From: an uncultured Nitrosomonadales bacterium
GTDB lineage: Bacteria; Pseudomonadota; Gammaproteobacteria; Burkholderiales; Gallionellaceae
Assembly (NCBI GenBank): GCA_903892645.1
Contig: CAITJF010000200.1
Coordinates: 1-33,821 of the forward strand
DNA length: 33,821 bases
Reading direction: 5' to 3'
Position 1 is the first letter of the stretch. Each line of letters starts with the position of its first letter. The position numbers and the translations under genes are program-made. Of the stretch, positions 838 to 27,028 are shown piece by piece. The notes beneath the pieces are model-generated. The model did no database searches. It was not told the origin of the DNA and worked only from the letters and a program-made list of their open reading frames with translations.

Positions 838-1103
838 GAGATTGCGGATTTGGCTTGGGGTGTAAAAACAGGAGAGGCAAAGCCAGAACATCTCTAATTT
901 TACAATTCGCGCGTTCATATAGGCCCCACGGTCACAGTCCTTCATGCAATGAAAACATTTGGCGCCAATGATCGGTTGGAGCAGATCAATCTCAACCTCC
1001 AGTGTCTCTTGATGGCACAGACTTGCCAGTGACCCTTCGAATCAACCTTCCATGAAGCTGACGTTCAACTCAGTGACAGTGAACACACCCCCACAAAATC
1101 AAT
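838..1103. other. intergenic stretch, no convincing gene
   Basis: Between the HDOD stop and the end of the permuted ssrA there is no ORF with a recognisable product. A 27-codon ORF at 949-1032 on the plus strand and short minus-strand ORFs show no Shine-Dalgarno sequence or familiar motif. It may be decayed mobile DNA. Confidence 0.5.
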
Positions 1104-1133
1104 GAGCCTCGGGATCATTATCACCCGAGGCCC
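1104..1133 (-). terminator. hairpin closing the permuted ssrA transcript
   Basis: On the minus strand GGGCCTCGGG and CCCGAGGCTC form a 10-bp stem with one G-U pair and a 10-base loop, followed by TCATTGATTTTGT. The T-tract is weak, so this could be a terminator or a 3' structural element of the coding piece. Confidence 0.5.
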
Positions 1134-1418
1134 ATCTAGTTGTGTTGTATGACAAGGCTCAACAGCCCCGGCTTACGGTTTTTTAGGCCGCCATAGCGAA
1201 GTTTTCATCGTTTGCATTTACATGCTTGCTTCATTTACGTCGATCGCCTGACGTGTCGCCCCGAAACCTATCTGCTCACTGTCGAAACCAGGTCATCCCC
1301 ATCATCAGCACACTGACCATCTAATGCACTCATGGTGGAGATGGGCGGAATCGAACCGCCGTCCAACAAGCCCTTATTGAGCCGGAGTTTTCGCAAACCG
1401 AAGTTTGCTCACAACAAT
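1104..1418 (-). ncRNA. ssrA: circularly permuted two-piece tmRNA gene
   Basis: This is tmRNA, which with SmpB rescues stalled ribosomes. Read on the minus strand, the acceptor piece comes first (about 1418 to 1333). It holds a GCAAAC-UUCG-GUUUGC hairpin (1408-1393), a T arm (GGCGG-UUCGAUU-CCGCC) and the end CAUCUCC-ACCA, with CCA at 1335-1333. A 32-nt intervening segment (1332-1301) follows, then the coding piece starts GGGGATGACCTGGTTTCGAC at 1300. GGGGATG pairs along all seven positions with CATCTCC, with one G-U pair. The tag frame GCA..TAA at 1215-1183 encodes ANDENFAMAA. TGAGC just after the coding 5' end can pair with GCTCA in the acceptor piece, and CACAAC (1144-1139) with GTTGTG (1415-1410), which would hold the two RNAs together. 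Two-piece tmRNAs are known in alphaproteobacteria, some cyanobacteria and a betaproteobacterial lineage. Exact ends of the pieces are inferred. Confidence 0.93.
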
Positions 1419-1424
1419 GCCTGT

Positions 1425-1433
1425 ATTTTAGCA
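1425..1433 (-). promoter_or_regulatory. extended -10 promoter of permuted ssrA
   Basis: The minus strand reads TGCTAAAAT here, an extended -10 element (TG-N-TAAAAT) about 7 bases before the likely start of the acceptor piece. Upstream, TTGATT at a 19-base spacing or TTGTCA at 14 bases are imperfect -35 candidates. Confidence 0.5.
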
Positions 1434-1465
1434 CAATCGTTGCCTGACAAATCAAATCCCAAACC

Positions 1466-1918
1466 TTATGCTGAAGGCGTAGCGTCTTTCTCCTGCACGC
1501 CAAATACTCGTTTGAACTGCTCATCCCATAACAGGGCTGGATTCACCGCCAACTCAAACAGCGTGACGTGATCTGGTAGTTTGTCATCCAGAATGGCAGC
1601 AACGATTTCCGGTGCAAGCGTGGTCAAGTTGACCATCCGACTGATGTAGCTGTTGTCCACACCTTCTCTGATAGCAAGTTCGTTCAAGGTGCTAACCTCG
1701 CCTGATTCCAACATTGCCAGCCAACGGTGACCGCGCGCAAGCGCTTGCTGGATTGGGGTCGGCTCATGGGTCTTCCCCGCTTTTCCTGTTTCACCATTTG
1801 GTAGCGTGATGACCCTGAGACCACTTTTCCGTCGAATGTTGATCGGAATATTCAGCATGAGCCTGCCATCGCTGCACGAGACAATGTCTGTAGCTCCGTT
1901 GATTTTGATTGAGGTCAT
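1466..1918 (-). CDS. recombinase-associated ParB-like HTH protein
   Basis: A 150-residue protein. Residues about 55-125 form a helix-turn-helix region of the type found in small proteins encoded just after serine recombinases: ARGHRWLAMLESGE, then LNELAIREGVDNSYISRMV as the helix-turn-helix, then LAPEIVAAILDDKLP. It likely binds DNA and may help control or direct the recombinase. Its ATG overlaps the stop of the preceding recombinase fragment by four bases (ATGA at 1918-1915), showing they were once one translationally coupled operon. The gene itself looks complete. Its end is only about 35 bases from the ssrA -10 box. Function beyond DNA binding is inference from family resemblance. Confidence 0.75.
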   Translation of the reverse strand: MTSIKINGATDIVSCSDGRLMLNIPINIRRKSGLRVITLPNGETGKAGKTHEPTPIQQALARGHRWLAMLESGEVSTLNELAIREGVDNSYISRMVNLTTLAPEIVAAILDDKLPDHVTLFELAVNPALLWDEQFKRVFGVQEKDATPSA

Positions 1919-2383
1919 GCCAGCGTCTCCTCTAGCTCTTTGGTTTTGGTCGGTTGTAACTCCATCACCACCTGTTCAATACCGCAGGGTCGCAAATTCA
2001 GCTCGATGTTGGTCGGCGAGACAACCACTTTTTCTACCAGCAATCTAACGATGCGCGTCTGCTCTGCCGGAAATAATTGCTCCCAAATAAGATCAAGTCG
2101 CGTCATCGCCACGGTAATCATGGCCTCATCGAGTTTGCCGTTGAGCAAGACGACTTTCGGCACGATGTCATTAATCATCGCTGGCTGGCGCATGATTGCG
2201 CGCAACTGGTCGAGCACGGCACCTTCTAGCTGATCGGCTGGCAATCTGGGAATGCCTGATTCGCCTGCTTGTACCTTGGTGTCGCGCATCGGGATGTAGT
2301 AACGATATCGGTTTGAGATTTTCTGTTGCGCGAGTGCATCACCGAGCTGGCCGGAACCGGGATAGTCAGTTTTCTGGTTGCTA
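1915..2383 (-). pseudogene. C-terminal fragment of a second serine recombinase
   Basis: The frame reads rightward in protein sense from about SNQKTDYPGSG. It has the C-terminal features of zinc-ribbon or coiled-coil type large serine recombinases: a core NRYRYYIPMRD, then ADQLEGAVLDQLRAIM, then RIVRLLVEKVVVSPTNIEL. The N-terminal catalytic domain and recombinase domain of this protein are missing. The frame is nominally open up to a start at 2469, but those first residues (MVNSASHWCWRVARHRR) are an out-of-frame reading of the neighbouring recombinase gene. It ends in the four-base overlap with the HTH gene. Most likely a remnant of a recombinase-HTH pair whose 5' part was replaced by another recombinase gene. 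Confidence 0.7.
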
Positions 2384-3739
2384 GGTATCGAAGCGTACTT
2401 TCCAATGATGACGACCACTCTCCGGTGTCTGGCAACGCGCCAGCACCAGTGAGATGCTGAATTCACCATTGATCAGCAGCAAGTCAGTGGCCGGATCGCG
2501 CCGCACGACGCCACCGATACTGGCGATCTGGCTTTCGGTCTGGTTGACGATTTCCGGATGGAAGCGGCGCAGAAATTTGTTGGTTTCCAGATAGCGGTAA
2601 TCACGATCGGGCGTGAAGCCCACCATTTGATACGCGCGCACTAGGCTGCCGAAGCGATGGGTGTAGATCGACGTGGAGGGCATGTTCTCGGCTTCGTTGA
2701 TGACTAGGCCCGACAAGAAGCCCCGGTGCTGGTACAGATTGCGCAGCCGTTCGATCAGCTCCTCGTTGCTGTACCGGTGCGACCGGGCGCGAAGGATGCC
2801 TTGCGCGGTGTAGAACAGTTCGGGTTGAACGACGGGGTCGAAGGCACCTTCCTTTTTGATCCACATGTCGGGCGTGTTTTCTACGCGCAGTTTTTTGAGC
2901 TTGAACGATCTGCGGTTGTAGATGTTGTTGCCGATGTATTTTTCGTTGGTCAGCACCTCATGCACGGTAGCGCGCGTCCATGGCCTGTCCAGATCGGTGC
3001 GCACCGCCATTTCGTTCAAGCGTCGGGCGATCTCCGATTCCACCAAGCCATCGTCGATGAACCAGCGATACATGAGATTGACGTTGCGAATCTCGTCTTC
3101 CGGGCCGGGCATGAGGATGACGCGGTCGGTCTGCAAACTCTTGTGCTCGCCCCGCGTCAGTTGTGCCTTGATGGAACCATTCTGATCCAGAAGGACACGA
3201 CGCAGCCCATAGCCCGCCGGACCGCCTTGCCGAAAACCCAACTCGATCAGTCGGCACTGCCCGGCGAACACCTTGGCGGACAATTCCCGACTGTATTCAC
3301 CGGCCATGGCGCGTTTTACACCTTTGACGATGGTGGATACCGGCGAGCCGTCATTCTCGAACTGCTCTGCGCAGTAGGCGACCTGGATACCGGCGCTGCG
3401 GCAGCGGTACTCGTAGTAGGCACTTTCGTCGGCATCCTGAAACCGTCCCCAGCGGCTGACGTCGTAGACCAGGATGATCGTAAAGTCTGCTGTGCCGCTT
3501 TCAACGTCCTTGAGCAACTGTTGCAACGATGCGCGGCCTTCCATGCGCAGACCGCTTTTGCCGGCATCGGTGTAGGTACGGACAATCTCTATGCCGCGCT
3601 GAGCCGCATATTCACGAATCTTGTCAGCCTGATTCTCGGTCGAATATTGCTGATGTTCTGTCGACATGCGCACGTATTCAGCGGCGCGAAATAGGGGGGC
3701 TCGAGTAACGCCTTCGTCGCTCATTTCTTCTTTTTGCAT
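2381..3739 (-). CDS. large serine recombinase, C-terminally truncated
   Basis: A 452-residue site-specific DNA recombinase. Residues about 20-160 are the resolvase domain with the nucleophile S26 in EYVRMSTEHQ and the motif YDVSRWGRFQDADE. Residues about 180-300 are the Recombinase domain (GGPAGYGLRRVL, WTRATVHEVLTNEKYIGNNIYN). The protein stops at WKVRFDT-TAG, within a region (INGEFSISLVLARC) where, as I recall the family, related proteins run on for some tens of residues. The following DNA belongs to a different recombinase. Catalytic residues are present, but the missing tail may disable it. ATG 3739 has AGAGGA 11 bases upstream; M6 is an alternative start. It may be the enzyme that mobilised the island, although this cannot be shown here. 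Confidence 0.8.
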   Translation of the reverse strand: MQKEEMSDEGVTRAPLFRAAEYVRMSTEHQQYSTENQADKIREYAAQRGIEIVRTYTDAGKSGLRMEGRASLQQLLKDVESGTADFTIILVYDVSRWGRFQDADESAYYEYRCRSAGIQVAYCAEQFENDGSPVSTIVKGVKRAMAGEYSRELSAKVFAGQCRLIELGFRQGGPAGYGLRRVLLDQNGSIKAQLTRGEHKSLQTDRVILMPGPEDEIRNVNLMYRWFIDDGLVESEIARRLNEMAVRTDLDRPWTRATVHEVLTNEKYIGNNIYNRRSFKLKKLRVENTPDMWIKKEGAFDPVVQPELFYTAQGILRARSHRYSNEELIERLRNLYQHRGFLSGLVINEAENMPSTSIYTHRFGSLVRAYQMVGFTPDRDYRYLETNKFLRRFHPEIVNQTESQIASIGGVVRRDPATDLLLINGEFSISLVLARCQTPESGRHHWKVRFDT

Positions 3740-3907
3740 TGCCGCAACCGTCCTCTGACAAGTGGATTCAATGCTCTCGGAGATCGGGCTTCACATCGCG
3801 ACAGGTATTTGTGGGCATGCCATGCATAGATGAGGCGTCAGGGATTCATGCGCGAGATACCGAGAGCGCATGGACGCGAATTTATCAGCATGGGCATGTT
3901 CTGCCGA

Positions 3908-4366
3908 TCACGTCCTCTCTTTGCAATCATCCGCCAAATCGGCTGAATCCCTTGCCACTACAGCGAGTTCGACAAGCCACGAGTCCATCTTTGCAATTCC
4001 ATCTACTGAGACGGCTGTCATCCGATAACGACCTGACGGTAAAGAAATAACTTGTTCTGACGCGTTCATCTTTGCAATCAAGGACTCCTGCCGCTTGAGA
4101 TTGCGCCGATGCTGCTGTTCACGGTTGCGTTCGGCGTAAGTTGGATTGGCCTCGCGATATTGGCTCCAATACTCAGGATGATTCTTGAGCCATTCTTTGT
4201 GCGCTCGTGATTGGTTATCGCGATAATCAGGATCGTTATTTCTCCTTTCCTGATGCCATCGTCGGCGTCGTTCACGCTGGCACGGGTTGGCAGAACAGTA
4301 GGTTTGATTTTTAACTTGGGGATGTGGCCGAAAACTTTGGCCACAGGCTTTGCATCGCTTTGTCAT
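3908..4366 (-). CDS. small zinc-finger protein of mobile DNA
   Basis: A 152-residue, very basic protein. The N-terminus holds a zinc-ribbon pattern, CKACGQSF, then YCSANPCQRERRRRW, followed by a repetitive polar stretch rich in Tyr, Arg and Asn (HPEYWSQYREANPTYAERN). I recognise this layout from short hypothetical proteins found near recombinases and transposases in proteobacteria, but no function is established. A longer frame reaches 4549, but the ATG at 4366 is preceded by GGAG seven bases upstream, and the family resemblance begins there, so I use it. It reads in the same direction as the recombinase, 168 bases before it, so the two could share a transcript. It may bind nucleic acid; that is inference. 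Confidence 0.65.
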   Translation of the reverse strand: MTKRCKACGQSFRPHPQVKNQTYCSANPCQRERRRRWHQERRNNDPDYRDNQSRAHKEWLKNHPEYWSQYREANPTYAERNREQQHRRNLKRQESLIAKMNASEQVISLPSGRYRMTAVSVDGIAKMDSWLVELAVVARDSADLADDCKERT

Positions 4367-4530
4367 GACTTGCTCCATAGAAAATTGATATGGAACGTGC
4401 GTGACAACGCCGACGGATTTCGAATATCTTCGGCATTGGATGCAGTTCTGCCATCCTGATTGCAGCGGAGATTGTTGCGTTTTGAAGTCTTTATGCCGGT
4501 TGGGTGTGTCGTGGCACACCCGTTCCGATG

Positions 4531-4558
4531 CATCGGCAGATGTTGACATCTACCGATG
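4531..4558. promoter_or_regulatory. palindromic operator upstream of abiEi
   Basis: Two 13-base arms, CATCGGCAGATGT and ACATCTACCGATG, match at 12 of 13 positions as an inverted repeat around a two-base centre. A -35-like TTGACA (4543-4548) sits in the middle. AbiEi antitoxins are known to repress their own operons by binding inverted repeats in front of the gene, and this dyad ends 12 bases before the start at 4571, so it is a good candidate for that operator. Confidence 0.65.
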
Positions 4559-4570
4559 TTATGGAACAAT

Positions 4571-4906
4571 ATGCCCGATATGGATAACGTTGCCGAGAGG
4601 CTGATCAATTTAACTCGATCCCAAGGGCTGATCCGCCCGTGTGATCTGATACCGATGGGAATCTCCCGTGTTTCCCTGACCCGTGCCGTCCGCCGTGGGC
4701 AGCTCGAACGCGTCGGTAGGGGGCTCTATGGGCTGCCCGGCCGCGAGGTCTCGGCTCATGGGGCACTGGCCGAGGTGGCGCGCCGAGTGCCAAAGGGTGT
4801 CGTTTGCCTGCTCTCGGCGCTGCGCTTCCATGGTCTGACCACCCAAGCCCCCTTCGAGGTGTGGCTGGCCATTGAGAATAAATCTCTTGCACCGAAGCTC
4901 GACTAG
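4571..4906 (+). pseudogene. abiEi: AbiEi-family type IV antitoxin, truncated
   Basis: The 111 residues from MPDMDNVAERL resemble the N-terminal half of AbiEi antitoxins: a winged helix at about residues 10-55 (GLIRPCDLIPMGISRVSLTR, then RGQLERVGRGLYGLP), then RRVPKGVVCLLSALRFHGL. Full-length members are near 200 residues and continue with a second domain needed to neutralise the toxin. Here the frame ends at APKLD-TAG and IS21-type DNA follows. No AbiEii nucleotidyltransferase toxin gene is present in the window. AbiE systems are phage-defence toxin-antitoxin pairs, so this is the leftover antitoxin of a lost system. The DNA-binding half may still bind the 4531-4558 palindrome. The start is uncertain: 4556 lies inside the palindrome and 4580 is also possible. 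Confidence 0.75.
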
Positions 4907-5540
4907 CGACGCGGGGGTTGTTTTTTACTCCTGATCCTTGGGTTTGGTCAAACTGTTTTTCCGCTTTCGCATCGACTCGCCGGTCAGGGTAAGTTGGTGA
5001 GCGTTGTGCACCAGACGATCCAGAATTGCATCTGCCAGTGTTGGATCGCCGATAGCATCATGCCAGTGCTCAAGCGGCAACTGACTGGTGATGATTGTTG
5101 ACCGGTGTCCGTGCCGGTCATCAAAGATTTCCAACAAGTCGCGCCGCGCCGTGTCGGTCAACACTGCCAACCCCCAATCATCCAGCACCAGCACATCCGT
5201 CTTGGCGATTTGCGCGAGCAACTTGGTATAGCGTCCATCACCATGCGCAATCGCCAGCTCCTCAAACAGTCTGGGCATGCGCATGTAGAGCGCGGTATGG
5301 CCTTGGCGACACGCCTGGTTGGCCAGCACACAAGCCAGAAAGGTCTTGCCCACACCTGTTGGGCCGGTGATCAATACATTCTGGTGTTCTTTCACCCAAG
5401 CGCCTGCCAAGAGACGGTTGAACAGGGTTTTGTCCAAACTGCGTGCCGCGCGGTGATCCACGTCCTCGGCAACGGCAGCCTGTTTGAGCTTGGCACGCCG
5501 CAAGCGGCTGGCGGTTTGACGGTTACTACCGGCACTCCCC
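4907..5540 (-). mobile_element. IS21-family insertion sequence remnant
   Basis: The fragment contains the 3' part of istB and the sequence up to the abiEi joint. No istA transposase is found, and the istB 5' end is missing, so only one end of the element survives. The outer border next to abiEi at about 4907 is where the antitoxin frame stops; the inner border near 5530 is where istB similarity ends. Not mobile by itself. Confidence 0.65.
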
Positions 5541-5542
5541 AC
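4925..5542 (-). pseudogene. istB: IstB ATPase, N-terminally truncated
   Basis: IstB is the AAA+ helper ATPase of IS21-type transposition. This frame has 205 residues against about 245-260 normally. The Walker A motif GPTGVGKT is at residues 60-67, and a Walker B motif VLVLDDWG is near residue 118. The C-terminus SMRKRKNSL is typical. The first roughly 50 family residues are missing: similarity begins at about [14 protein letters not shown], and the preceding MGSAGS comes from the neighbouring DNA. With neither istA nor an intact N-terminus, it is taken as a broken gene, even though an ATG (5542) gives an open frame. Confidence 0.85.
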
Positions 5543-5546
5543 TCAA

Positions 5547-5786
5547 ATGCGAAGACAAATCGAGAAACTCTATCGGTTTGAGGGATGGTCTGAGTCTCAG
5601 GTCTATGCGGCGGCAGTGATAGGACTAGCGAGAAAATTTGGAATTACAACCGAGAATATGTCGGTCTCAAGGTTGATTTCAGATTTTGGTGTGGCAGGAC
5701 TGGTTCGTTTTTTCGCCGATGGGTCCACGGTGAATAAATCGGATTTGGTTTGGAAGTGCAGTTATGAGCTGGCTCCGGCACTGTGA
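5547..5786 (+). CDS. unrecognised 79-residue ORF
   Basis: I do not recognise this ORF. It starts at ATG 5547, just beyond the IS21 joint, and the frame is open further upstream, so it may be the 3' end of a gene cut by the insertion. The protein (RRQIEKLYRFEGWSESQV at the start, ending CSYELAPAL) is mostly helical in character, with no signal peptide or metal-binding motif. It is followed after 24 bases by a larger ORF in the same direction, and the two could be cotranscribed. Confidence 0.4.
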   Translation: MRRQIEKLYRFEGWSESQVYAAAVIGLARKFGITTENMSVSRLISDFGVAGLVRFFADGSTVNKSDLVWKCSYELAPAL

Positions 5787-5810
5787 AACTATGAGTTAGA
5801 GAGATTGCCA

Positions 5811-6863
5811 ATGATCAACCTAAATGCGCTTCAGAGAGTGTTGCCGATCTCTGGGCTGGAAGCCCAGTGGGTTGGAATTATTGACGGGTTCTCGGACAAG
5901 CCGAGGAAAGACTGGTGGCAAGAGAGCATCCAGTATCTGGAGCCCCCTGCTGCTCAGCATGTTCCCTATGTTGATGCCCAAAGTGCCATGGCGCTGCTGT
6001 TCAAGCATCAGGGAATGTCAGCAGACAAGGCCAAGGCTGGTGATGCTTGGCTGGAGTTGAAGGGACGGCAGGACTCGACGCAGTGCGTCGTTTTCTACGA
6101 CTACTTGGAGATGAACGCGGACGAGTGCATCCCAGTGCCGGCCTTGATTCAGTTCTTACGTGAAAAGAAACTGGTGTCGGACGAAGTTGGCGACTTTCTT
6201 GATCGATCGGTTGCGACTGTGGCAGTGGTGCAGATATTTCAGGGGCCAGACAACTGGGATACTCCCTGGTCAATTGCCACGCTACCTGACGAGCCGCCGG
6301 CCAAAGCGATGATCGAGTTTGTGCCTGGCCCACCAGGAGACGTCGACGATCAGATCATCCCGAAGTTTGAAGCATGGCGTGAATTCATTCGTCCGATTGC
6401 AACAGTTCTCGAAAATGCGCTGGGTGAACCGGTCTACTACTTCAAGGTGCAAGATTGCGACACCGACGACGACAGCGCGCATCGATTTCTCGTGCTGCAC
6501 TGGCTTTGCACATGTTGGCCGGAATCTACCTACGTGAAGTTCCTTGTCTCAAGCATTGGTGCAAAGGATGTTGAAGATCTCAAGGCGGCACTGATTAACC
6601 CGAATAACTACACTCAGCCCTTCAAGATGAACGATGCCTTTATCGGCATTGAACCTAGGGCGTGCCGTTTTGAGTATTTTCCACCGAAAGCACGTAAGAG
6701 CGTCGGCATCGTGTTCTCAACTGAGGCTGCGCGAACCTCGGCGGAATCGCTGCTTCTCCAAAAAATCAATTGCGACGCATTGATCATCGCGCCGCCAGAC
6801 CTTGTCCCAGATGACTGGGTCCACGGACAGCAGGGTGTGAGGTCTAACAGCTTACGCTGCTAA
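5811..6863 (+). CDS. hypothetical protein reading into ssrA remnant
   Basis: A 350-residue soluble protein that I do not recognise. ATG 5811 is preceded by GAGAGA at a good spacing; a TTG at 5805 is less likely. There is no transmembrane segment or signal peptide. Notable stretches are WWQESIQYLEPP near residue 35, QIFQGPDNWDTPWS near 145, and FVPGPPGDVDDQIIPKFEAW near 175, with many acidic and aromatic residues. The normal C-terminus is probably near PPDLVPDDWV. The last residues (RSNSLRC) and the stop codon are read from the antisense of the broken one-piece tmRNA gene, so the gene's end was shaped by that joint. Nearby antitoxin and recombinase remains suggest cargo of a mobile or defence island, which is inference. 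Confidence 0.6.
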   Translation: MINLNALQRVLPISGLEAQWVGIIDGFSDKPRKDWWQESIQYLEPPAAQHVPYVDAQSAMALLFKHQGMSADKAKAGDAWLELKGRQDSTQCVVFYDYLEMNADECIPVPALIQFLREKKLVSDEVGDFLDRSVATVAVVQIFQGPDNWDTPWSIATLPDEPPAKAMIEFVPGPPGDVDDQIIPKFEAWREFIRPIATVLENALGEPVYYFKVQDCDTDDDSAHRFLVLHWLCTCWPESTYVKFLVSSIGAKDVEDLKAALINPNNYTQPFKMNDAFIGIEPRACRFEYFPPKARKSVGIVFSTEAARTSAESLLLQKINCDALIIAPPDLVPDDWVHGQQGVRSNSLRC

Positions 6864-6975
6864 AGCGTACTTTTCGTCGTTTGCGACTATTGGTTTTCCA
6901 GCTGATTTACGAGGTGGCGGGTCCTCGGTATGCCCTACACTGCTTTGCAACCCACGTCGAAGCCAGGTCGCCCCC
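6839..6975 (-). pseudogene. ssrA: one-piece tmRNA gene, 5' part only
   Basis: On the minus strand the sequence starts GGGGGCGACCTGGCTTCGAC at 6975, the conserved tmRNA 5' end. It continues through the first pseudoknot, with CCGAGG and CCTCGTAAAT, to the tag frame GCAAACGACGAA..TAA, which encodes ANDEKYALAA (about 6885-6853). Similarity can be followed for only 10-20 bases beyond the tag stop (GCTGTTAGACC). Then the DNA belongs to the hypothetical gene. No matching 3' part, which should end in a sequence pairing with GGGGGCG followed by CCA, is visible in the window. The acceptor end at 1333 fits GGGGATG of the permuted gene better than this GGGGGCG. The piece is therefore a broken native ssrA. 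Its exact 3' limit is uncertain by some tens of bases. Confidence 0.88.
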
Positions 6976-7063: not shown

Positions 7064-8476
7064 CTATGCGGAATGGCTTGCCGGCGGTTGTATTGCGTGA
7101 ACCAGATAGCGCCCCATGTGCCGGTCGGCCTTGGCGACGTGGCCGGTAAGCCAGTCGAACAGCAGGAGCTTGGTGCGGAATGAGAGATAAAGCGGGTCGC
7201 AGGTGTTGGCCTCAGCTTCTTTCTTGAGCGCCATGAAATTTTCGATAAAGCGTTTGTGCTCTTGCAGGTGGCCGTCGAGGAACGAGTAGCTATAGCGATG
7301 CATCAGGTTTTCTTCGGTCTTGAGGGATACTTGCGCATGGTTCGCAAGGTAAGCGAATATTTCGTGGAAGGCGTTGTTGCTTTCTATTTTCTCAGCCAAG
7401 GTAAACGTATTGATTTTATCGAAGAGTTGTTTATGTGATTTGTCGATGTTTTCAATGCCGATATGAAATTCAGCCCTCCATTCCAGGGCGTTATCCAGTT
7501 CACCAGTGCTGAGATGCTGTCCGGTAGTGAGGTAATCCTCACAGCGGGCCAGATAGATGTGTGCAGGGATATCCTTGGGGGCGATCTTTATGCACTGGTT
7601 GAGCAGTTCAATTGAACGTGGAATTTCTTTCAAATGATAATAGGCAATCGCTTCTTCAAATTTGGGTTTGGATGTGATCTTGCCGCTTCTCAAGTCGGCG
7701 GGATCATTGTCGAAAACCTCATATACAGACAGGGGCTGTGTTTTGCCCTTTACCCGGATGCGATCAAGAAAACGGATGTGGTATTTCGCCGGGTCGGTAA
7801 GGTCATACAGGGTGTTCTGGCTGATCAACAGCGGGACATGATAGGTCTTTGTGGCTTCTTCAATGCGTGAAGTCAGGTTGACGGGATCCCCGATAACGGT
7901 GCTGTCCATGCGGTTTGTCCCGCCTACCGTGCCGATCATGACTATGCCCGTGTTCAGCCCGATCCCGATCTGGGTCGGCACATAGCCCGCCCGGTTCCGC
8001 CCCGCATTGTAGAGGTTCAATTTCTCAAGCATGGCAATTGCGCCGGATAAAGCGTCGTCTGCGCCATGCGGGAACAGCGCCATGATGGCATCGCCCATAT
8101 ATTTGTCGATGATGCCGCGATGCTTGCTGATGACCGGTTCCATCTGGCTGAGATAGGAGTTGATGAACTCGAAATTTTCGCCGGGGGTCATGGATTCCGA
8201 TAGTGGGGTGAAATTGCGGATGTCGGAGAACATGATGGTCAGCTTGCGTTCAACCTGATCGCCCAGCTTGACGTCAACGATGCTGTCTTTTTCCAGCAGG
8301 GTGAGCAGTTGGCGCGGAATCAGCCGCCCGTAGGCCATTTCGGTTTGCTGCAACAGCGAGAGGGCCTGCTGGTGGGCAAGGATGACCTTCTGCAGAATTA
8401 CCTGGATGGCATCCTGTGCCGAGCCTTCCGAACCGGCCGGTTCGGGCAATTGGTTTTTGTCATTTGCGTTGCCCAT
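7064..8476 (-). CDS. class III cyclase-TPR-hemerythrin fusion protein
   Basis: A 470-residue cytosolic signalling protein. Residues about 75-255 are a class III nucleotide cyclase domain with metal-binding D85 (FSDIRNFT) and D129 (KYMGDA), purine-site K125, and N200 and R204 in GDPVNLTSR, so catalysis is plausible. Residues about 270-320 form TPR-like helices. Residues about 330-460 are a bacteriohemerythrin domain with H348, E388, H403, H407, H446 and D451. The histidine expected four residues before E388 is S384, so the usual diiron site lacks one ligand. The product is probably cAMP or a related nucleotide, controlled by oxygen, NO or redox through the hemerythrin part; the signal is inference. 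It ends about 50 bases from the broken ssrA promoter and has no obvious operon partner. Confidence 0.85.
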   Translation of the reverse strand: MGNANDKNQLPEPAGSEGSAQDAIQVILQKVILAHQQALSLLQQTEMAYGRLIPRQLLTLLEKDSIVDVKLGDQVERKLTIMFSDIRNFTPLSESMTPGENFEFINSYLSQMEPVISKHRGIIDKYMGDAIMALFPHGADDALSGAIAMLEKLNLYNAGRNRAGYVPTQIGIGLNTGIVMIGTVGGTNRMDSTVIGDPVNLTSRIEEATKTYHVPLLISQNTLYDLTDPAKYHIRFLDRIRVKGKTQPLSVYEVFDNDPADLRSGKITSKPKFEEAIAYYHLKEIPRSIELLNQCIKIAPKDIPAHIYLARCEDYLTTGQHLSTGELDNALEWRAEFHIGIENIDKSHKQLFDKINTFTLAEKIESNNAFHEIFAYLANHAQVSLKTEENLMHRYSYSFLDGHLQEHKRFIENFMALKKEAEANTCDPLYLSFRTKLLLFDWLTGHVAKADRHMGRYLVHAIQPPASHSA

Positions 8477-8591: not shown

Positions 8592-9317
8592 CTAAATGTG
8601 GTTTAGCAATGCCAGGGGTGAGTCTATATCTCCATCGGCATGCCAGCTATCCGGGTTGGTTTGCTCATCAATGTAGCCATAGCGGGCGATGATGCCGCGC
8701 ATTCCGGCGGCTTGTGCCGCTTCCATGTCACGCAGGTCGTCTCCCAGGTAAAGGCAATTTACCGGAGCGATGCCCATAATTTCACTGGCCTTGAGTAGCG
8801 GGTCTGGATAGGGCTTGGCGCGTGCGCAGGTGTCGCCGCTGATCAGGCAGGCGGCGCGTTGCGCATAGCCGAGCGCTTGCATCAACGGGACGGTGAAGCG
8901 GTGCGGTTTGTTGGTGACAATGCCCCACGGCAGGCTGCGTTGTTCCAGCGTCTCGACCAGTTGCGCCATACCAGCGAACAATGCGGTGTGGACGCAGATG
9001 TGGGCATCGTAGTAATTCAGGAAGGATTCGCGCAGGGTGGCGAAACCCGGTGCATCCGGCTCGATGCCGAAACCCAGTTTGAGCAGGCCGCGCGCGCCAT
9101 GTGAGGCTTGCGGGCGGACGGTTTTCAGCGGCAGCGGCGGCAAGCCGCGCTGACCGCGCACATGGTTCAGCGCGGCGGCCAAGTCCGGCGCGGTGTCTGC
9201 GAAGGTGCCGTCCAGGTCGAATAAGACTGCCTTGATTACAGCGCCACCCTCTCCCGCGCTGTCGCGCTTCCCTCTCCCGCGAGCGGGAGAGGGGCTGGGG
9301 GAGAGGGCGCTAATCAC
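8592..9317 (-). CDS. gph: HAD-family phosphoglycolate phosphatase
   Basis: HAD-IA phosphatase of 241 residues. It has the nucleophile motif [13 protein letters not shown] (first Asp near residue 34), the TNKP motif II, the K in AKPYPDP and the acidic motif [11 protein letters not shown]. Next to ubiG it matches the betaproteobacterial gph that removes 2-phosphoglycolate, though related HAD enzymes cannot be excluded. Odd point: the first 26 residues ([23 protein letters not shown]) are encoded by a palindromic repeat at 9241-9310 and are not part of the HAD fold. The only canonical in-frame start before the motif is GTG 9317, which overlaps the ubiG stop by 8 bases. The original start may have been lost when the repeat arrived. 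Confidence 0.85.
9241..9310. repeat. palindromic GGGAGAGGGG repeat inside gph start
   Basis: CCCTCTCCCGC (9270-9280) and GCGGGAGAGGG (9283-9293) form an 11-bp hairpin. A larger inverted repeat (GCGCC-CCCTCTCCC against GGGAGAGGGCGC) encloses it. A 24-base core at 9285-9308 recurs exactly at 17102-17125. It is a REP-like dispersed element. Confidence 0.8.
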
Positions 9318-10005
9318 GATGGCATGCGAACAGGTAATTGACGTCGGTATCTTTGCCCAGCGAATAGGTCTTGTAGAGCGGGTGGTAACTCATGCCGGTG
9401 ATGTCGTTCACATCCAGCCCGGCGTCGCGGCAATACTGTGCGAGTTCGGAAGGCTTGATGAATTTATCATAATCGTGCGTTCCGCGCGGCAGTAGCTTGA
9501 GCAGGTATTCTGCCCCGATCACCGCGAACAGGTAAGACTTGGGGTTGCGGTTAAGGGTGGAGAAGAACACATGGCCGCCCGGCTTGGCCAGTTGCGCACA
9601 GGCTTGCACCGTGCTGCCTGGGTCGGGCACATGTTCGAGCAGCTCCATGCAGGTAACCACGTCGTAGTGCCCCGGCTGTTCAGCAGCGAGGTCTTCCACT
9701 GCGATGTTGTGGTATTCGACTTGCCGGCCACTTTCCAGCAGGTGCAGCTTGGCAACTTGCAAGGCCTTGTCGCCGAGATCGATGCCGGTGACTTGCGCGC
9801 CGAGTGCGGCCATGCTTTCGGCCAGAATGCCGCCGCCGCAGCCGACATCCAGCACGATTTTGCCGGACAGCGGCGCGATGCGGTTGATGTAATCCAGGCG
9901 CAGCGGGTTGATTTCATGCAGCGGCTTGAACTCGCTGCTGGGGTCCCACCAGCGGTGGGCAAGCTGGCTGAATTTTTCCAGTTCGAGCGGATCGGCGTTG
10001 GTCAT
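9310..10005 (-). CDS. ubiG: ubiquinone 3-O-methyltransferase UbiG
   Basis: A 231-residue SAM-dependent O-methyltransferase that carries out both O-methylations of the ubiquinone ring. Family signatures are [15 protein letters not shown] at the N-terminus, the SAM-binding motif [17 protein letters not shown], then GIDLGDKAL, and [13 protein letters not shown]. The C-terminus [21 protein letters not shown] is typical of UbiG. The frame extends upstream to 10227, but family similarity starts at [12 protein letters not shown], so ATG 10005 is used; its ribosome binding site is weak. The stop overlaps the GTG of gph by 8 bases, so the two are likely cotranscribed. It is divergent from gyrA. Confidence 0.95.
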
Positions 10006-10100
10006 GGTGTGTTTGTTTGACAAGTAGGCGCGGAATGTAGCAAATCTCGAGCTTGACTGCCAGCGCATATAGCGGTTTTGGCGCTGGAAGCATTTATGTT

Positions 10101-10130
10101 TTGTCTCGACCAAGGTGGGCATGATAAAAT
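10101..10130 (+). promoter_or_regulatory. likely sigma-70 promoter of gyrA
   Basis: TTGTCT (10101-10106) and TAAAAT (10125-10130) are separated by 18 bases, giving a start about 35 bases before the gyrA ATG. No other promoter in the ubiG-gyrA intergenic region looks as good on this strand. Confidence 0.5.
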
Positions 10131-10171
10131 CACAGGCTGATTTATAAGCATTCATTAGGGTATCGCTATCT

Positions 10172-12736
10172 ATGGAACAATTCGCCAAGGAAACTCTGCC
10201 AGTCAGTCTGGAAGAGGAGATGCGCAAGTCGTATCTTGACTACGCCATGAGCGTGATCGTCGGGCGTGCGCTGCCCGATGCGCGCGACGGACTCAAGCCG
10301 GTGCATCGCCGTGTGCTGTTCGCCATGCACGAACTTTCCAACGACTGGAACAAGGCCTACAAGAAGTCGGCGCGTATTGTCGGTGACGTGATTGGTAAAT
10401 ACCATCCGCACGGCGACACGGCGGTGTACGACACCATCGTGCGCATGGCGCAGGATTTTTCGCTGCGCTATCCGCTGGTGGACGGGCAGGGTAACTTCGG
10501 TTCGGTGGATGGCGATAACGCGGCGGCGATGCGTTATACCGAAATCCGCATGTCGAAGATCGCACATGAACTGCTCGCCGACCTGGACAAGGAAACGGTC
10601 AACTTCGGGCCAAACTATGATGGCTCCGAGCACGAGCCGCTGGTGTTGCCGGCGCGTTTCCCCAATCTGCTGGTGAATGGCTCTTCCGGTATCGCGGTGG
10701 GCATGGCGACCAATATCCCGCCGCATAACCTGACCGAAGTGGTGGATGCCTGCCTGGCGCTGCTGAAAAACCCCGAGATGGATATCGAGCAATTGATCGA
10801 GCTGGTTCCCGCGCCGGATTTCCCCACAGCCGGTTTCATCTACGGTCTGGCCGGGGTGAAAGAAGGCTATCGCACCGGGCGTGGCCGCGTGGTGATGCGC
10901 GGCCGCACACACTTTGAGGATATGGATAAATCCGGGAGTCGTCAGTCCATCATCATCGATGAACTGCCTTACCAGGTAAACAAAGCCAACTTGCTGATAA
11001 AGATTGGCGAGCTGGTGCGCGACAAGCGCATCGAGGGCATTTCAGAAATTCGCGATGAATCGGACAAGTCCGGGATGCGTGCGGTTATCGAGCTGAAGCG
11101 CGGCGAAAATGCCGACGTGATTCTCAACCAGCTCTACAAGGAAACCCAGTTGCAGGACAGCTTCGGCATGAATATGGTGGCCTTGCTCGATGGCCGCCCG
11201 CTGTTGCTCAATCTGAAGCAGTTCCTGGACGCCTTCCTGCGCCATCGCCGCGAGGTGGTGACGCGCCGCACCGTGTTCGAGTTGCGCAAGGCGCGTGATC
11301 GCGGGCATATTTTGGAAGGCCTGGCGGTTGCGCTGTCTAACGTGGATGAGATTATCGCGCTGATCAAGGCGGCGGCCAATCCGGCCATCGCCAAGCAGGA
11401 ATTGATGGCGCATTCATGGCGCTCTTCGCTGGTGGAAGACATGCTGAGCCGGGTGAGCGATGCGTCGCGCCCGGAAAACCTGTTGCCTGAATTCGGTCTG
11501 GTGGGACAGGGCAAGCAGCGCGCATACAAGCTGTCCGACGTGCAGGCGCAAGCCATCCTGGAGTTGCGTTTACAGCGCCTGACCGGGCTGGAGCAAGACA
11601 AGATTGTCGGTGAATATCGCGAAGTGATGGACAAGATTGCCGACCTGCTCGATATTCTGGCCAAGCCGGCGCGCATTACGCAGATCATCAGTGATGAGCT
11701 GATTGCGATTAAATCGCAATATGGCGACAAGCGCCGCAGCGAGATCATCACCCACACGCAAGACATGAGCATGGAAGACCTGATCGCGCCGGAAGACGTG
11801 GTGGTCACGCTGTCGCACGGCGGCTACATGAAGGCGCAGAAGCTGGATGAATACCGCGCACAGAAGCGCGGCGGGCGCGGCAAGCAGGCGGCCAGCACCA
11901 AGGAAGACGATTTCGTCGACAACCTGTTCATCGCCAACACGCATAACTACATCCTGTGCTTCTCCAGCCGCGGACGCGTGTACTGGATCAAGGTATATGA
12001 CGTGCCGCAGGGTTCGCGCACCAGCCGTGGCAAGCCGATTGTCAACCTGCTGCCGCTGGAAGACGGCGAGAAGATCAACGCCATCCTGCCGGTAACAGAA
12101 TTCAGCGATGACCAGTTCGTATTTTTCGCCACCGCCAACGGCACGGTGAAAAAGACTGCGCTGTCGGATTTCTCCAACCCGCGCAAGGCGGGCATCATTG
12201 CCATCAATCTGGATGAGGGCGATTACCTGATCGGCGTGGCGCTAACCGACGGCAAGCATGACGTGATGCTGTTCTCCAATGGCGGCAAGGCGGTGCGCTT
12301 CGACGAAAACGACGTGCGTTCCACGGGACGCGCGTCGCGCGGCGTGCGCGGCATGAAGCTGGCCGCGAAACAGCATGTAATCGCGCTGCTGGTGGCGGAA
12401 GATGAGAACCAAGTGGTGCTGACCGCGACCGAAAATGGCTACGGCAAGCGCACATCAATTACCGAGTACACCCGCCATGGGCGCGGCACGCAGGGCATGA
12501 TCGCGATTCAAACTTCTGCCCGTAACGGCAAGGTGGTGGCGGCAACATTAGTGAATCAGGAAGATGAGATCATGCTGATCGGCACCAACGGCGTGTTGAT
12601 CCGCACCCGCGTCAAGGAAATCCGCGAGATGGGACGTACTACGCAAGGTGTCACGCTGATTAATCTGGGCAAGGGCGACAAGCTGGCTGGATTGAGCCGC
12701 ATTGCCGATCCTGATTCAGAAGAAGAATCCGAATAA
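10172..12736 (+). CDS. gyrA: DNA gyrase subunit A
   Basis: An 854-residue gyrase A subunit, which breaks and rejoins DNA with GyrB to introduce negative supercoils. The catalytic tyrosine is Y122 ([10 protein letters not shown]). The quinolone-determining region [13 protein letters not shown] has Thr83 and Asp87 by E. coli numbering. Thr83 is the normal residue in several bacteria and does not by itself show resistance. The C-terminal beta-pinwheel domain starts after about residue 530 and contains the GyrA box QKRGGRG near residue 564, which marks a true gyrase rather than topoisomerase IV. The acidic tail DPDSEEESE is typical. The start is ATG 10172. It is followed after 21 bases by serC, so cotranscription is possible. 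Confidence 0.98.
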
Positions 12737-26894: not shown

Positions 26895-26921
26895 TCAGCG
26901 CATTCCCAACGTTTCTGGCAA

Positions 26922-26956
26922 CCCCGCCCGGTGCAAGCTTGGCGGGGTTTTGTTTT
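26922..26956 (+). terminator. intrinsic terminator after the ComEA-like gene
   Basis: CCCCGCC (26922-26928) pairs with GGCGGGG (26941-26947) around a 12-base loop, followed by TTTTGTTTT. The flanking A and T extend the stem by one pair. It ends the plus-strand hld/comEA cluster. Confidence 0.85.
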
Positions 26957-26987
26957 CAGATCGCCCGGCCGGGGGGAGTCCTTCGGC

Positions 26988-27004
26988 GAGCTCAGGACAG
27001 GCTT
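26988..27004. repeat. dispersed GAGCTCAGGACAGGCTT repeat
   Basis: The 17-base sequence matches 16 of 17 bases of an inverted copy at 22052-22068. Both lie between genes, close to terminators. It appears to be a short dispersed repeat of a kind often seen in proteobacterial intergenic DNA. Confidence 0.5.
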
Positions 27005-27028
27005 GTGAACCCCAGCAATATCCCTGAG

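What the first reader, a model, noticed from the sequence alone, without database searches (positions are those of the whole stretch)
1104..6975. Possible swap of a native one-piece tmRNA for an island-borne permuted tmRNA
Two different tmRNA genes in the same orientation flank a 5.4 kb mosaic of mobile DNA: one broken, one complete and permuted. The simplest reading is that an element destroyed the native gene while supplying a substitute, so ribosome rescue now depends on the island. That would make the island hard to lose, like an addiction module based on an RNA gene. The link between element and permuted gene is inference.
Basis: inference. Interest (0 to 1): 0.85.

Follow-up and report, generated by a model that had tools for sequence, protein, structure and literature searches.

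The report
Permuted tmRNA replaces broken native tmRNA
In a bacterium of the iron-oxidiser family Gallionellaceae the usual gene for the ribosome-rescue RNA has lost its second half, and a foreign, rearranged version that seems to have come in with a virus-like element lies beside it; related genomes show what look like earlier and later steps of the same takeover.

Summary
Observation confirmed. An intact permuted (two-piece) tmRNA gene (1092-1425, minus) and the first 156 nt of a one-piece ssrA (6820-6975, minus) flank 5.4 kb of decayed mobile DNA. The missing 3' half was not found in the draft assembly. The window is from Gallionellaceae; this permuted gene is in 14 of 158 family genomes. 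Relatives form a series: native gene alone; prophage-like element with a serine recombinase (F18/F17) behind an intact ssrA; the same module with the permuted gene beside F17 and ssrA still present (G035); both genes adjacent (G092); permuted gene only (9 of 14, six at or beside the native locus, inverted). Window 1022-2310 is 89.5% identical to G035. A predicted provirus with an F18-family integrase carries an internal permuted tmRNA. The local recombinase is a frame-shifted chimera, and 12 of 14 carriers show no F17/F18 module beside the permuted gene, so dependence is on the gene, not on the island.

The parts
1092..1425 (-). intact permuted (two-piece) tmRNA gene, tag ANDENFAMAA (tag codons 1183-1215)
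   Evidence: ARAGORN; RF01850 164.1 bits (1103-1428) and RF04321 138.4 bits; acceptor stem, T stem and G3-U70 all pair in the 13 family genes compared
1022..2310 (-). block shared with G035 (other genus): permuted gene + F17 + C-terminal part of F18 recombinase
   Evidence: 89.5% identity over 1301 columns
1425..1430 (-). conserved -10-like TAAAAT at the start of the permuted gene
   Evidence: alignment; the consensus scan called no promoter on this strand, so inference
1466..1918 (-). F17, 150-aa recombinase-associated protein
   Evidence: no Pfam match; G035 homologue matches phrog_14161 'recombinase'
1915..2316 (-). C-terminal 133 aa of the F18 serine recombinase (inside ORF 1915-2469), 94% identical to G035
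2381..3739 (-). second serine recombinase, 452 aa, lacking about 69 C-terminal aa, out of frame with the F18 piece
   Evidence: Pfam Resolvase + Recombinase; Methylibium plasmid homologue is 1566 bp
3908..4549 (-). ORF without Pfam or PHROG match
4556..4906 (+). AbiEi-like N-terminal fragment
   Evidence: Pfam
4925..5542 (-). IS21 IstB-like fragment
   Evidence: Pfam
5805..6863 (+). 352-aa ORF whose 3' end runs into antisense of the ssrA fragment (junction 6819/6820)
   Evidence: one 33% identical homologue on a Pseudomonas plasmid
6820..6975 (-). 5' fragment (nt 1-156 of about 369) of native one-piece ssrA, tag ANDEKYALAA at 6852-6884
7064..8476 (-). cyclase/hemerythrin-domain protein: native upstream neighbour of ssrA
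   Evidence: Pfam; same order in G092, G024, G077, G036
8592..12736 (.). native ssrA neighbourhood: gph-like (8592-9317 -), ubiG-like (9310-10227 -), gyrA-like (10172-12736 +)
   Evidence: synteny; these three gene names come from recall, not from a family search

Best explanation
This is a late stage of replacement of a host RNA gene by a mobile equivalent. (1) Prophage-like elements with a large serine recombinase (F18) and its small partner (F17) integrate at the 3' end of the one-piece ssrA and leave it complete. (2) Some carry a permuted tmRNA gene between F17 and the attachment end. (3) With two tmRNAs in the cell the native gene became dispensable and was lost by ordinary deletion; here a junction after nt 156 fused it to an ORF of the mosaic. 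(4) The element decays (chimeric, frame-shifted recombinase in the window; no F17/F18 module beside the gene in 12 of 14 carriers), while the permuted gene is kept because the cell now needs it. Shown: both genes' state, the element module, the graded series across relatives, several gains or losses on the host trees. Inferred: direction and order of events, that the permuted RNA is made and works, and that the cell depends on it.
For: Gene states. Distribution: 14 of 158 family genomes, 4 of 15 genera; an exact-pattern scan of GTDB r220 contigs gave 14 contigs, all titled as Gallionellaceae members. Native gene: 5 of 14 permuted-positive genomes still have it (3 full length or nearly so, 2 running off a contig) against 106 of 136 negative ones, three of the 106 partial (Fisher p 0.002; at >=90% complete and <=5% contaminated 2 of 9 against 72 of 85, p 0.0002) (genomes are related, so p is indicative). 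F18 behind complete ssrA, F17 side nearest: G013, G021, G116, and with partial F18 G126, G135, G009; G035 with ssrA nt 86-369 visible. ssrA 3'-end copies of 28 nt: in G018 before an attachment-like stretch with F17 and an F18 piece about 5 kb on, in G105 by an attachment-like stretch. Shared block G000/G035. 62-column F17/promoter remnant in G115 (E 4e-9; 0 of 60 control pieces score as high). Provirus IMGVR 3300045454_000140: F18-family integrase (76%) at contig 4-1203 and a 269-bit permuted tmRNA at about 17.9-18.3 kb beside a phage ParB/methylase gene. Function: 13 of 13 compared genes keep all acceptor and T-stem pairs and G3-U70; G028 changed three acceptor pairs on both sides. Host trees need 5 (gph) and 4 (gyrA) gains or losses, at least 3 and 2 forced.
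Against: Only G000 and G035 have the F17/F18 module next to the permuted gene, plus a short remnant in G115; flank matches to F17 are only suggestive in G114, G041 and G024 (0, 0 and 2 of 60 controls as high) and in G092 (1 of 60), and absent in G088, G093, G099, G118, G028 (12-31 of 60); G110 and G121 were tested by profile only, without a match. G035's contig is 6.9 kb in a MAG with 6% contamination, so its genus is less sure than the arrangement. G000 has no detectable ssrA 3' repeat, so integration at ssrA is inferred from relatives. None of the 80 kept IMG/VR loci with an F18-family recombinase has a permuted tmRNA within the fetched flank; in the one provirus the tmRNA is internal, found by a separate pattern, and of another permuted lineage. 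Thirty of 136 negative genomes also lack a one-piece match, so absence in a draft is weak evidence. No expression data.
Confidence: 0.6

Rival explanations
1. One reading: one insertion event broke the native ssrA and supplied the substitute.
For: Broken gene, complete gene and recombinase remnants lie within 6 kb; no 3' half found elsewhere in the assembly.
Against: Elements with this recombinase lie behind six complete ssrA genes and that of G035, and G092, G024 and G114 hold both RNAs; the break at nt 156 is far from the 3'-end attachment site; the ORF at the junction has no Pfam or PHROG match to a recombinase.
Confidence: 0.1
2. The permuted gene is an old family gene that was duplicated and lost many times; the recombinase neighbours are chance, because ssrA loci attract islands.
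For: One Gallionella-like subclade inherits it vertically (gyrA 100/100, permuted-gene clade 100/99); most copies have no recombinase module beside them.
Against: 14 of 158 genomes, several unrelated loci, G000 and G035 share 1.3 kb and group 99/99, G115 falls outside the other copies of its genus.
Confidence: 0.15
3. The permuted gene moves as a bare ~0.5 kb cassette by homologous or illegitimate recombination, and the serine recombinase element merely picked it up.
For: Four g2 genomes share only 55-137 bp of 5' flank at different loci; conservation ends 70-80 bp past the gene in G000, G035, G024.
Against: G115 and possibly G114/G041/G024 carry F17 remnants upstream. No exact inverted repeat of 11 nt or more bounds the gene in the 8 of 14 loci tested, and one 14-nt direct repeat in G088 only, so no cassette mechanism is visible.
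Confidence: 0.1
4. Assembly or binning artefact.
For: Draft MAG of 268 contigs; the contig ends just left of the permuted gene; five carriers have the gene on contigs under 13 kb.
Against: Eight carriers have it on contigs of 49-142 kb, five of these with gyrA/gph in the stretch held, in independent MAGs; G035 shows the same block.
Confidence: 0.05

Closest known systems
Betaproteobacterial permuted (two-piece) tmRNA, RF01850 / RF04321
   Same: gene order, tag, acceptor and T stems, scores over gathering
   Different: in the table (6 of 13 family genes against 8 of 13 others of the order) 49-62% identical, 47-49% to one outlier; mobile and patchy inside one family
ssrA genomic islands of Dehalococcoides (serine recombinase DsiB, PMC3146451, passages read)
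   Same: serine recombinase module behind the 3' end of ssrA, repeats of the ssrA end
   Different: no tmRNA cargo is mentioned in the passages read (a tRNA-Gly-like structure is); here an element carries a tmRNA and the host gene is later lost
Phage-borne tmRNA genes (PMC9004378, PMC11590407, passages read)
   Same: phages carry tmRNA, in the first paper permuted; the second suggests, citing Mao et al. 2009 (not read), that a phage copy could circumvent inactivation of the host gene
   Different: here an incoming copy appears to have displaced the host gene in several lineages
Genomes with a second or third ssrA (PMC4131195, passages read)
   Same: two alleles in one genome
   Different: the passages read do not describe coexistence of permuted and one-piece forms followed by loss

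Membership tests
permuted tmRNA (RF01850/RF04321) | 3' tRNA half precedes 5' half; score over gathering | tested here: met
permuted tmRNA (RF01850/RF04321) | Ala identity G3-U70 and paired acceptor/T stems | tested here: met
   13 of 13 compared genes, (G121, split over two contigs, left out); that G3-U70 marks alanine is from recall
permuted tmRNA (RF01850/RF04321) | transcript processed into two pieces and active | not testable with these tools
   needs RNA data
functional one-piece tmRNA (native fragment) | complete 3' half with acceptor and T arm | tested here: not met
   homology ends at nt 156; 3' half not found
ssrA-integrated genomic island (window) | ssrA 3'-end repeat bounding the element | tested here: not met
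   no copy in G000 other than inside the permuted gene, up to 2 mismatches in 25
ssrA-integrated genomic island (window) | integrase gene of an ssrA-targeting family | tested here: inconclusive
   only the C-terminal third of F18 remains, joined out of frame to another recombinase
addiction module | loss of the element kills or harms the cell | not testable with these tools
   essentiality of tmRNA here unknown
addiction module | element retained together with the essential gene | tested here: not met
   no F17/F18 homology by blastn in the held flanks of 12 of 14 carriers (other recombinase families not ruled out)

The most novel reading that the evidence does not exclude
ssrA-targeting serine-integrase prophages carry their own permuted tmRNA as insurance at their target gene, and by making the host copy redundant they repeatedly convert hosts from one-piece to two-piece tmRNA: a phage-driven route by which gene permutation spreads. 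Permuted tmRNAs on 8 viral contigs share 42-51 of 52 core bases with this family's gene, against 28-41 of 52 in 12 bacterial genes outside the family (the viral rows were picked by a pattern in that core, so biased).
Probability: 0.25. Interest if true: 0.8.

Novelty: new variant of a known kind. Interest (0 to 1): 0.6.

Why it matters
How permuted tmRNA genes spread is, as far as I know, open. This family offers the native state, coexistence and replacement side by side, with a plausible vehicle, so displacement of a near-universal RNA gene by a mobile one becomes directly testable in relatives that carry both copies.

Tried and rejected
Near copies of this permuted gene in phage and plasmid records: only partial matches (1 phage, 4 Cupriavidus plasmids); none in viral contigs with the specific pattern. 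F17 search in viral contigs: 224 stretches matched a pattern, none a relative. Promoter and terminator scans called nothing on the minus strand at the gene. Exact repeats bounding the cassette, 8 of 14 loci: one 14-nt direct repeat in G088, no inverted one. A second ssrA in G119 first looked element-borne, but the matching flank is a MazE/MazF-like pair by my reading, not recombinase. HDOD flank search did not locate the far border. Profile search for F17 remnants gave only G035; for the nucleotide tests see the Against line. A phylogenetic link of phage and family genes is weak (63/85, long branches). The stem print-out used wrong anchors for three rows (G092, G110, G114); one search replaces it. 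Rows left out of the tree: outlier G392, viral L293 (cut off) and L296. G121 (gene split over two contigs) is left out. On checking, I lowered the best explanation from 0.62 to 0.6 because G035's contig is short and three of the F18 genes behind ssrA are partial; I also corrected G028's changed pairs from four to three.
Full report
WHAT IS THERE. The window is one whole contig (C200) of a draft genome of 2.68 Mb in 268 contigs. ARAGORN finds one tmRNA, permuted, at 1092-1425 minus; cmscan scores it 164.1 bits with RF01850 and 138.4 with RF04321, and finds the one-piece family RF00023 at 6682-6967 minus with 56.5 bits. Only the first part of the latter is ssrA: against intact one-piece genes the homology ends at 6820, nt 156, and those 156 nt are identical to same-genus G019. 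The rest of the gene was not found in the assembly (one search had no positive control). The permuted gene is complete; its acceptor and T stems and the G3-U70 pair hold in all 13 full genes compared, and G028 has changed three acceptor pairs on both sides while keeping pairing.

BETWEEN THEM. Reading from the permuted gene: F17 (150 aa), the last 133 aa of recombinase F18, 452 of about 521 aa of another serine recombinase in a different frame, an ORF without match, an AbiEi-like fragment, an IS21 IstB fragment and two more ORFs. The last ORF (5805-6863) runs into the ssrA fragment on the other strand, as a deletion junction would give (inference). The recombinase is therefore a frame-shifted chimera, and the element looks immobile (inference).

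DISTRIBUTION. A DNA search of all 158 held genomes of the family found the permuted gene in 14, in 4 of 15 genera; RF01850 gave the same 14 of 150 above its cut-off. In the order, 16 of 399 sampled genomes have an RF01850 match at E <= 1e-25, 3 of them from this family; the family's gene is 47-62% identical to the others in the table shown (6 family genes by 8 others).

STATE OF THE NATIVE GENE. Of the 14: full length in G092 and G024, nt 3-369 at a contig start in G114; running off a contig in G110 (nt 70-369) and G035 (nt 86-369); 5' fragment only in G000; no one-piece gene found in G028, G041, G088, G093, G099, G115, G118, G121. G093 has a 33-nt ssrA-end copy at the start of a 3-kb contig, which may be an attachment repeat or a contig break. 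Of 136 genomes without the permuted gene, 106 have a one-piece match at E <= 1e-14 (three of these, G052, G104 and G132, are partial). Fisher p 0.002 counting 5 of 14, 4e-5 counting 3 of 14, and 0.0002 in the better genomes (2 of 9 against 72 of 85). Relatedness makes these indicative only. Thirty negative genomes lack such a match, 13 of them among the 85 better ones; of 8 looked at again with laxer filters none passed the cut-off and one, G002, had a piece at a contig end. So missing the gene is not rare in these drafts.

WHERE THE PERMUTED GENE SITS. G092 and G110: downstream of ssrA on the same strand (282 bp apart in G092), before a T2SSE-type gene; G077 has the same neighbours without it, and an ssrA-end-like CGCCTCCACCA stands before the permuted gene. 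Six genomes of one other genus (G093, G028, G115, G118, G099, G121): at or beside the native locus, convergent with the gph-like gene, or in G115 with the cyclase gene after it. G024, G041, G088, G114: other loci or contigs without the native neighbours, sharing only 55-137 bp of 5' flank. G035: behind ssrA, with a C92-peptidase gene between, and the same F18-F17-permuted block as in the window.

THE VEHICLE. F18 relatives lie behind a complete ssrA, F17 side nearest, in G013, G021 (other genes between), G116, and as partial genes in G126, G135 and G009; G035 is the seventh, with ssrA nt 86-369 visible. Copies of the last 28 nt of ssrA occur in G018, before an attachment-like stretch with F17 and an F18 piece about 5 kb on, and in G105, by an attachment-like stretch. 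The G013 element has DUF2924, an S24 repressor, a D5-type primase and a ParB/methylase, so it is prophage-like. In IMG/VR 219 stretches encode F18 relatives, 80 kept; eight of the 80 contain an ssrA 3' end of at least 33 nt by BLAST, and eight others a tRNA-Ser, -Gln, -Ala or -Phe gene somewhere in the stretch. None of the 80 stretches held a permuted tmRNA. But the contig of one of them, IMGVR 3300045454_000140 (43 kb), also holds an intact permuted tmRNA (269.2 bits, tag ANDERFAIAA) at about 17.9-18.3 kb, beside a phage-type ParB/methylase gene on one side and, after an unmatched ORF, a phrog_8020 gene on the other. It groups with the general Burkholderiales type, not with this family's gene.

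HISTORY. In the permuted-gene tree G000 and G035 group with 99/99; G115 stays outside the other copies of its genus, four of which form a 100/99 clade. On the gph tree (22 rows, 9 with the permuted gene) presence needs 5 changes, at least 3 forced; on the gyrA tree (14 rows, 8 with it) 4, at least 2 forced. So there were several gains or losses, and one long vertical inheritance.

READING. Insertion at ssrA spares the host gene; the incoming tmRNA makes it redundant; deletion follows; the element decays. The order is inferred from living stages. The claim that ribosome rescue depends on the permuted RNA rests on finding no other tmRNA in a 99.99%-complete draft and on the report that trans-translation is essential in Proteobacteria investigated so far in the absence of Arf proteins (PMC11633108, abstract and other passages seen); I did not look for arfA, arfB or smpB here.

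KNOWN WORK. Islands at ssrA, a serine recombinase at ssrA in Dehalococcoides (PMC3146451, passages), phage tmRNAs (PMC9004378, passages), extra ssrA alleles (PMC4131195, passages) and the idea that a phage copy offsets damage to the host gene (PMC11590407, passages, citing Mao et al. 2009, not read) are in print. The tmRNA database paper (PMC11915505, passages and part 1 of the results) has no occurrence of Gallionella in its main text. Searches for 'permuted tmRNA', two-piece tmRNA with betaproteobacteria, tmRNA gene with horizontal/permuted/genomic island, ssrA with serine recombinase, tmRNA with Gallionella, 'two tmRNA genes', 'variations on the tmRNA', and tmRNA with gene displacement and prophage listed nothing that, by title and start of abstract, describes this displacement; some lists were cut at 10 or 20 rows. 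Sharkady and Williams 2004 was not held.

Noticed in passing
L207-L286 (IMG/VR, 80 loci) and G000:C182 (L153): F18-type serine recombinases share stretches with ssrA 3' ends (8 of 80) or with tRNA-Ser(gga), -Gln, -Phe or -Ala genes (8 of 80, up to about 6 kb away), and in G000:C182 a 52%-identical one lies about 1 kb from a tRNA-Ala, although the Islander paper (PMC4383910, passages read) states that serine integrases are not known to target such genes. Targeting itself was not tested.
   Followed up: partly
L287 12768-13089 minus (IMGVR 3300039159_000070): A phage contig with topoisomerase and ribonucleotide reductase genes has a permuted tmRNA (RF04321 93 bits) whose core matches this family's gene at 51 of 51 aligned bases; ARAGORN misses it.
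   Followed up: partly
L288-L292, L295, L296: Permuted tmRNAs on viral contigs with longer tags such as ANDAFYNEDLRLAA and ANDSAYFEPVRLAA.
   Followed up: no
G020, G082, G089 (Gallionellaceae, 99% complete): No tmRNA of either form found; the best answers in these three were tRNA genes. Possibly gaps or another form.
   Followed up: partly
G119 C13 and C15 (L176, L177): Two intact one-piece ssrA genes in one draft genome, one at the native locus, one beside what I read as a MazE/MazF-like pair.
   Followed up: partly
G103:C48 (L178 2365-2435): A 71-nt ssrA 3' fragment 1.4 kb upstream of the intact ssrA, on the same strand.
   Followed up: no
window 26920-27018: Weak match to Pseudomonas P6 sRNA (24 bits, below gathering 50), with a GC-rich hairpin.
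   Followed up: no
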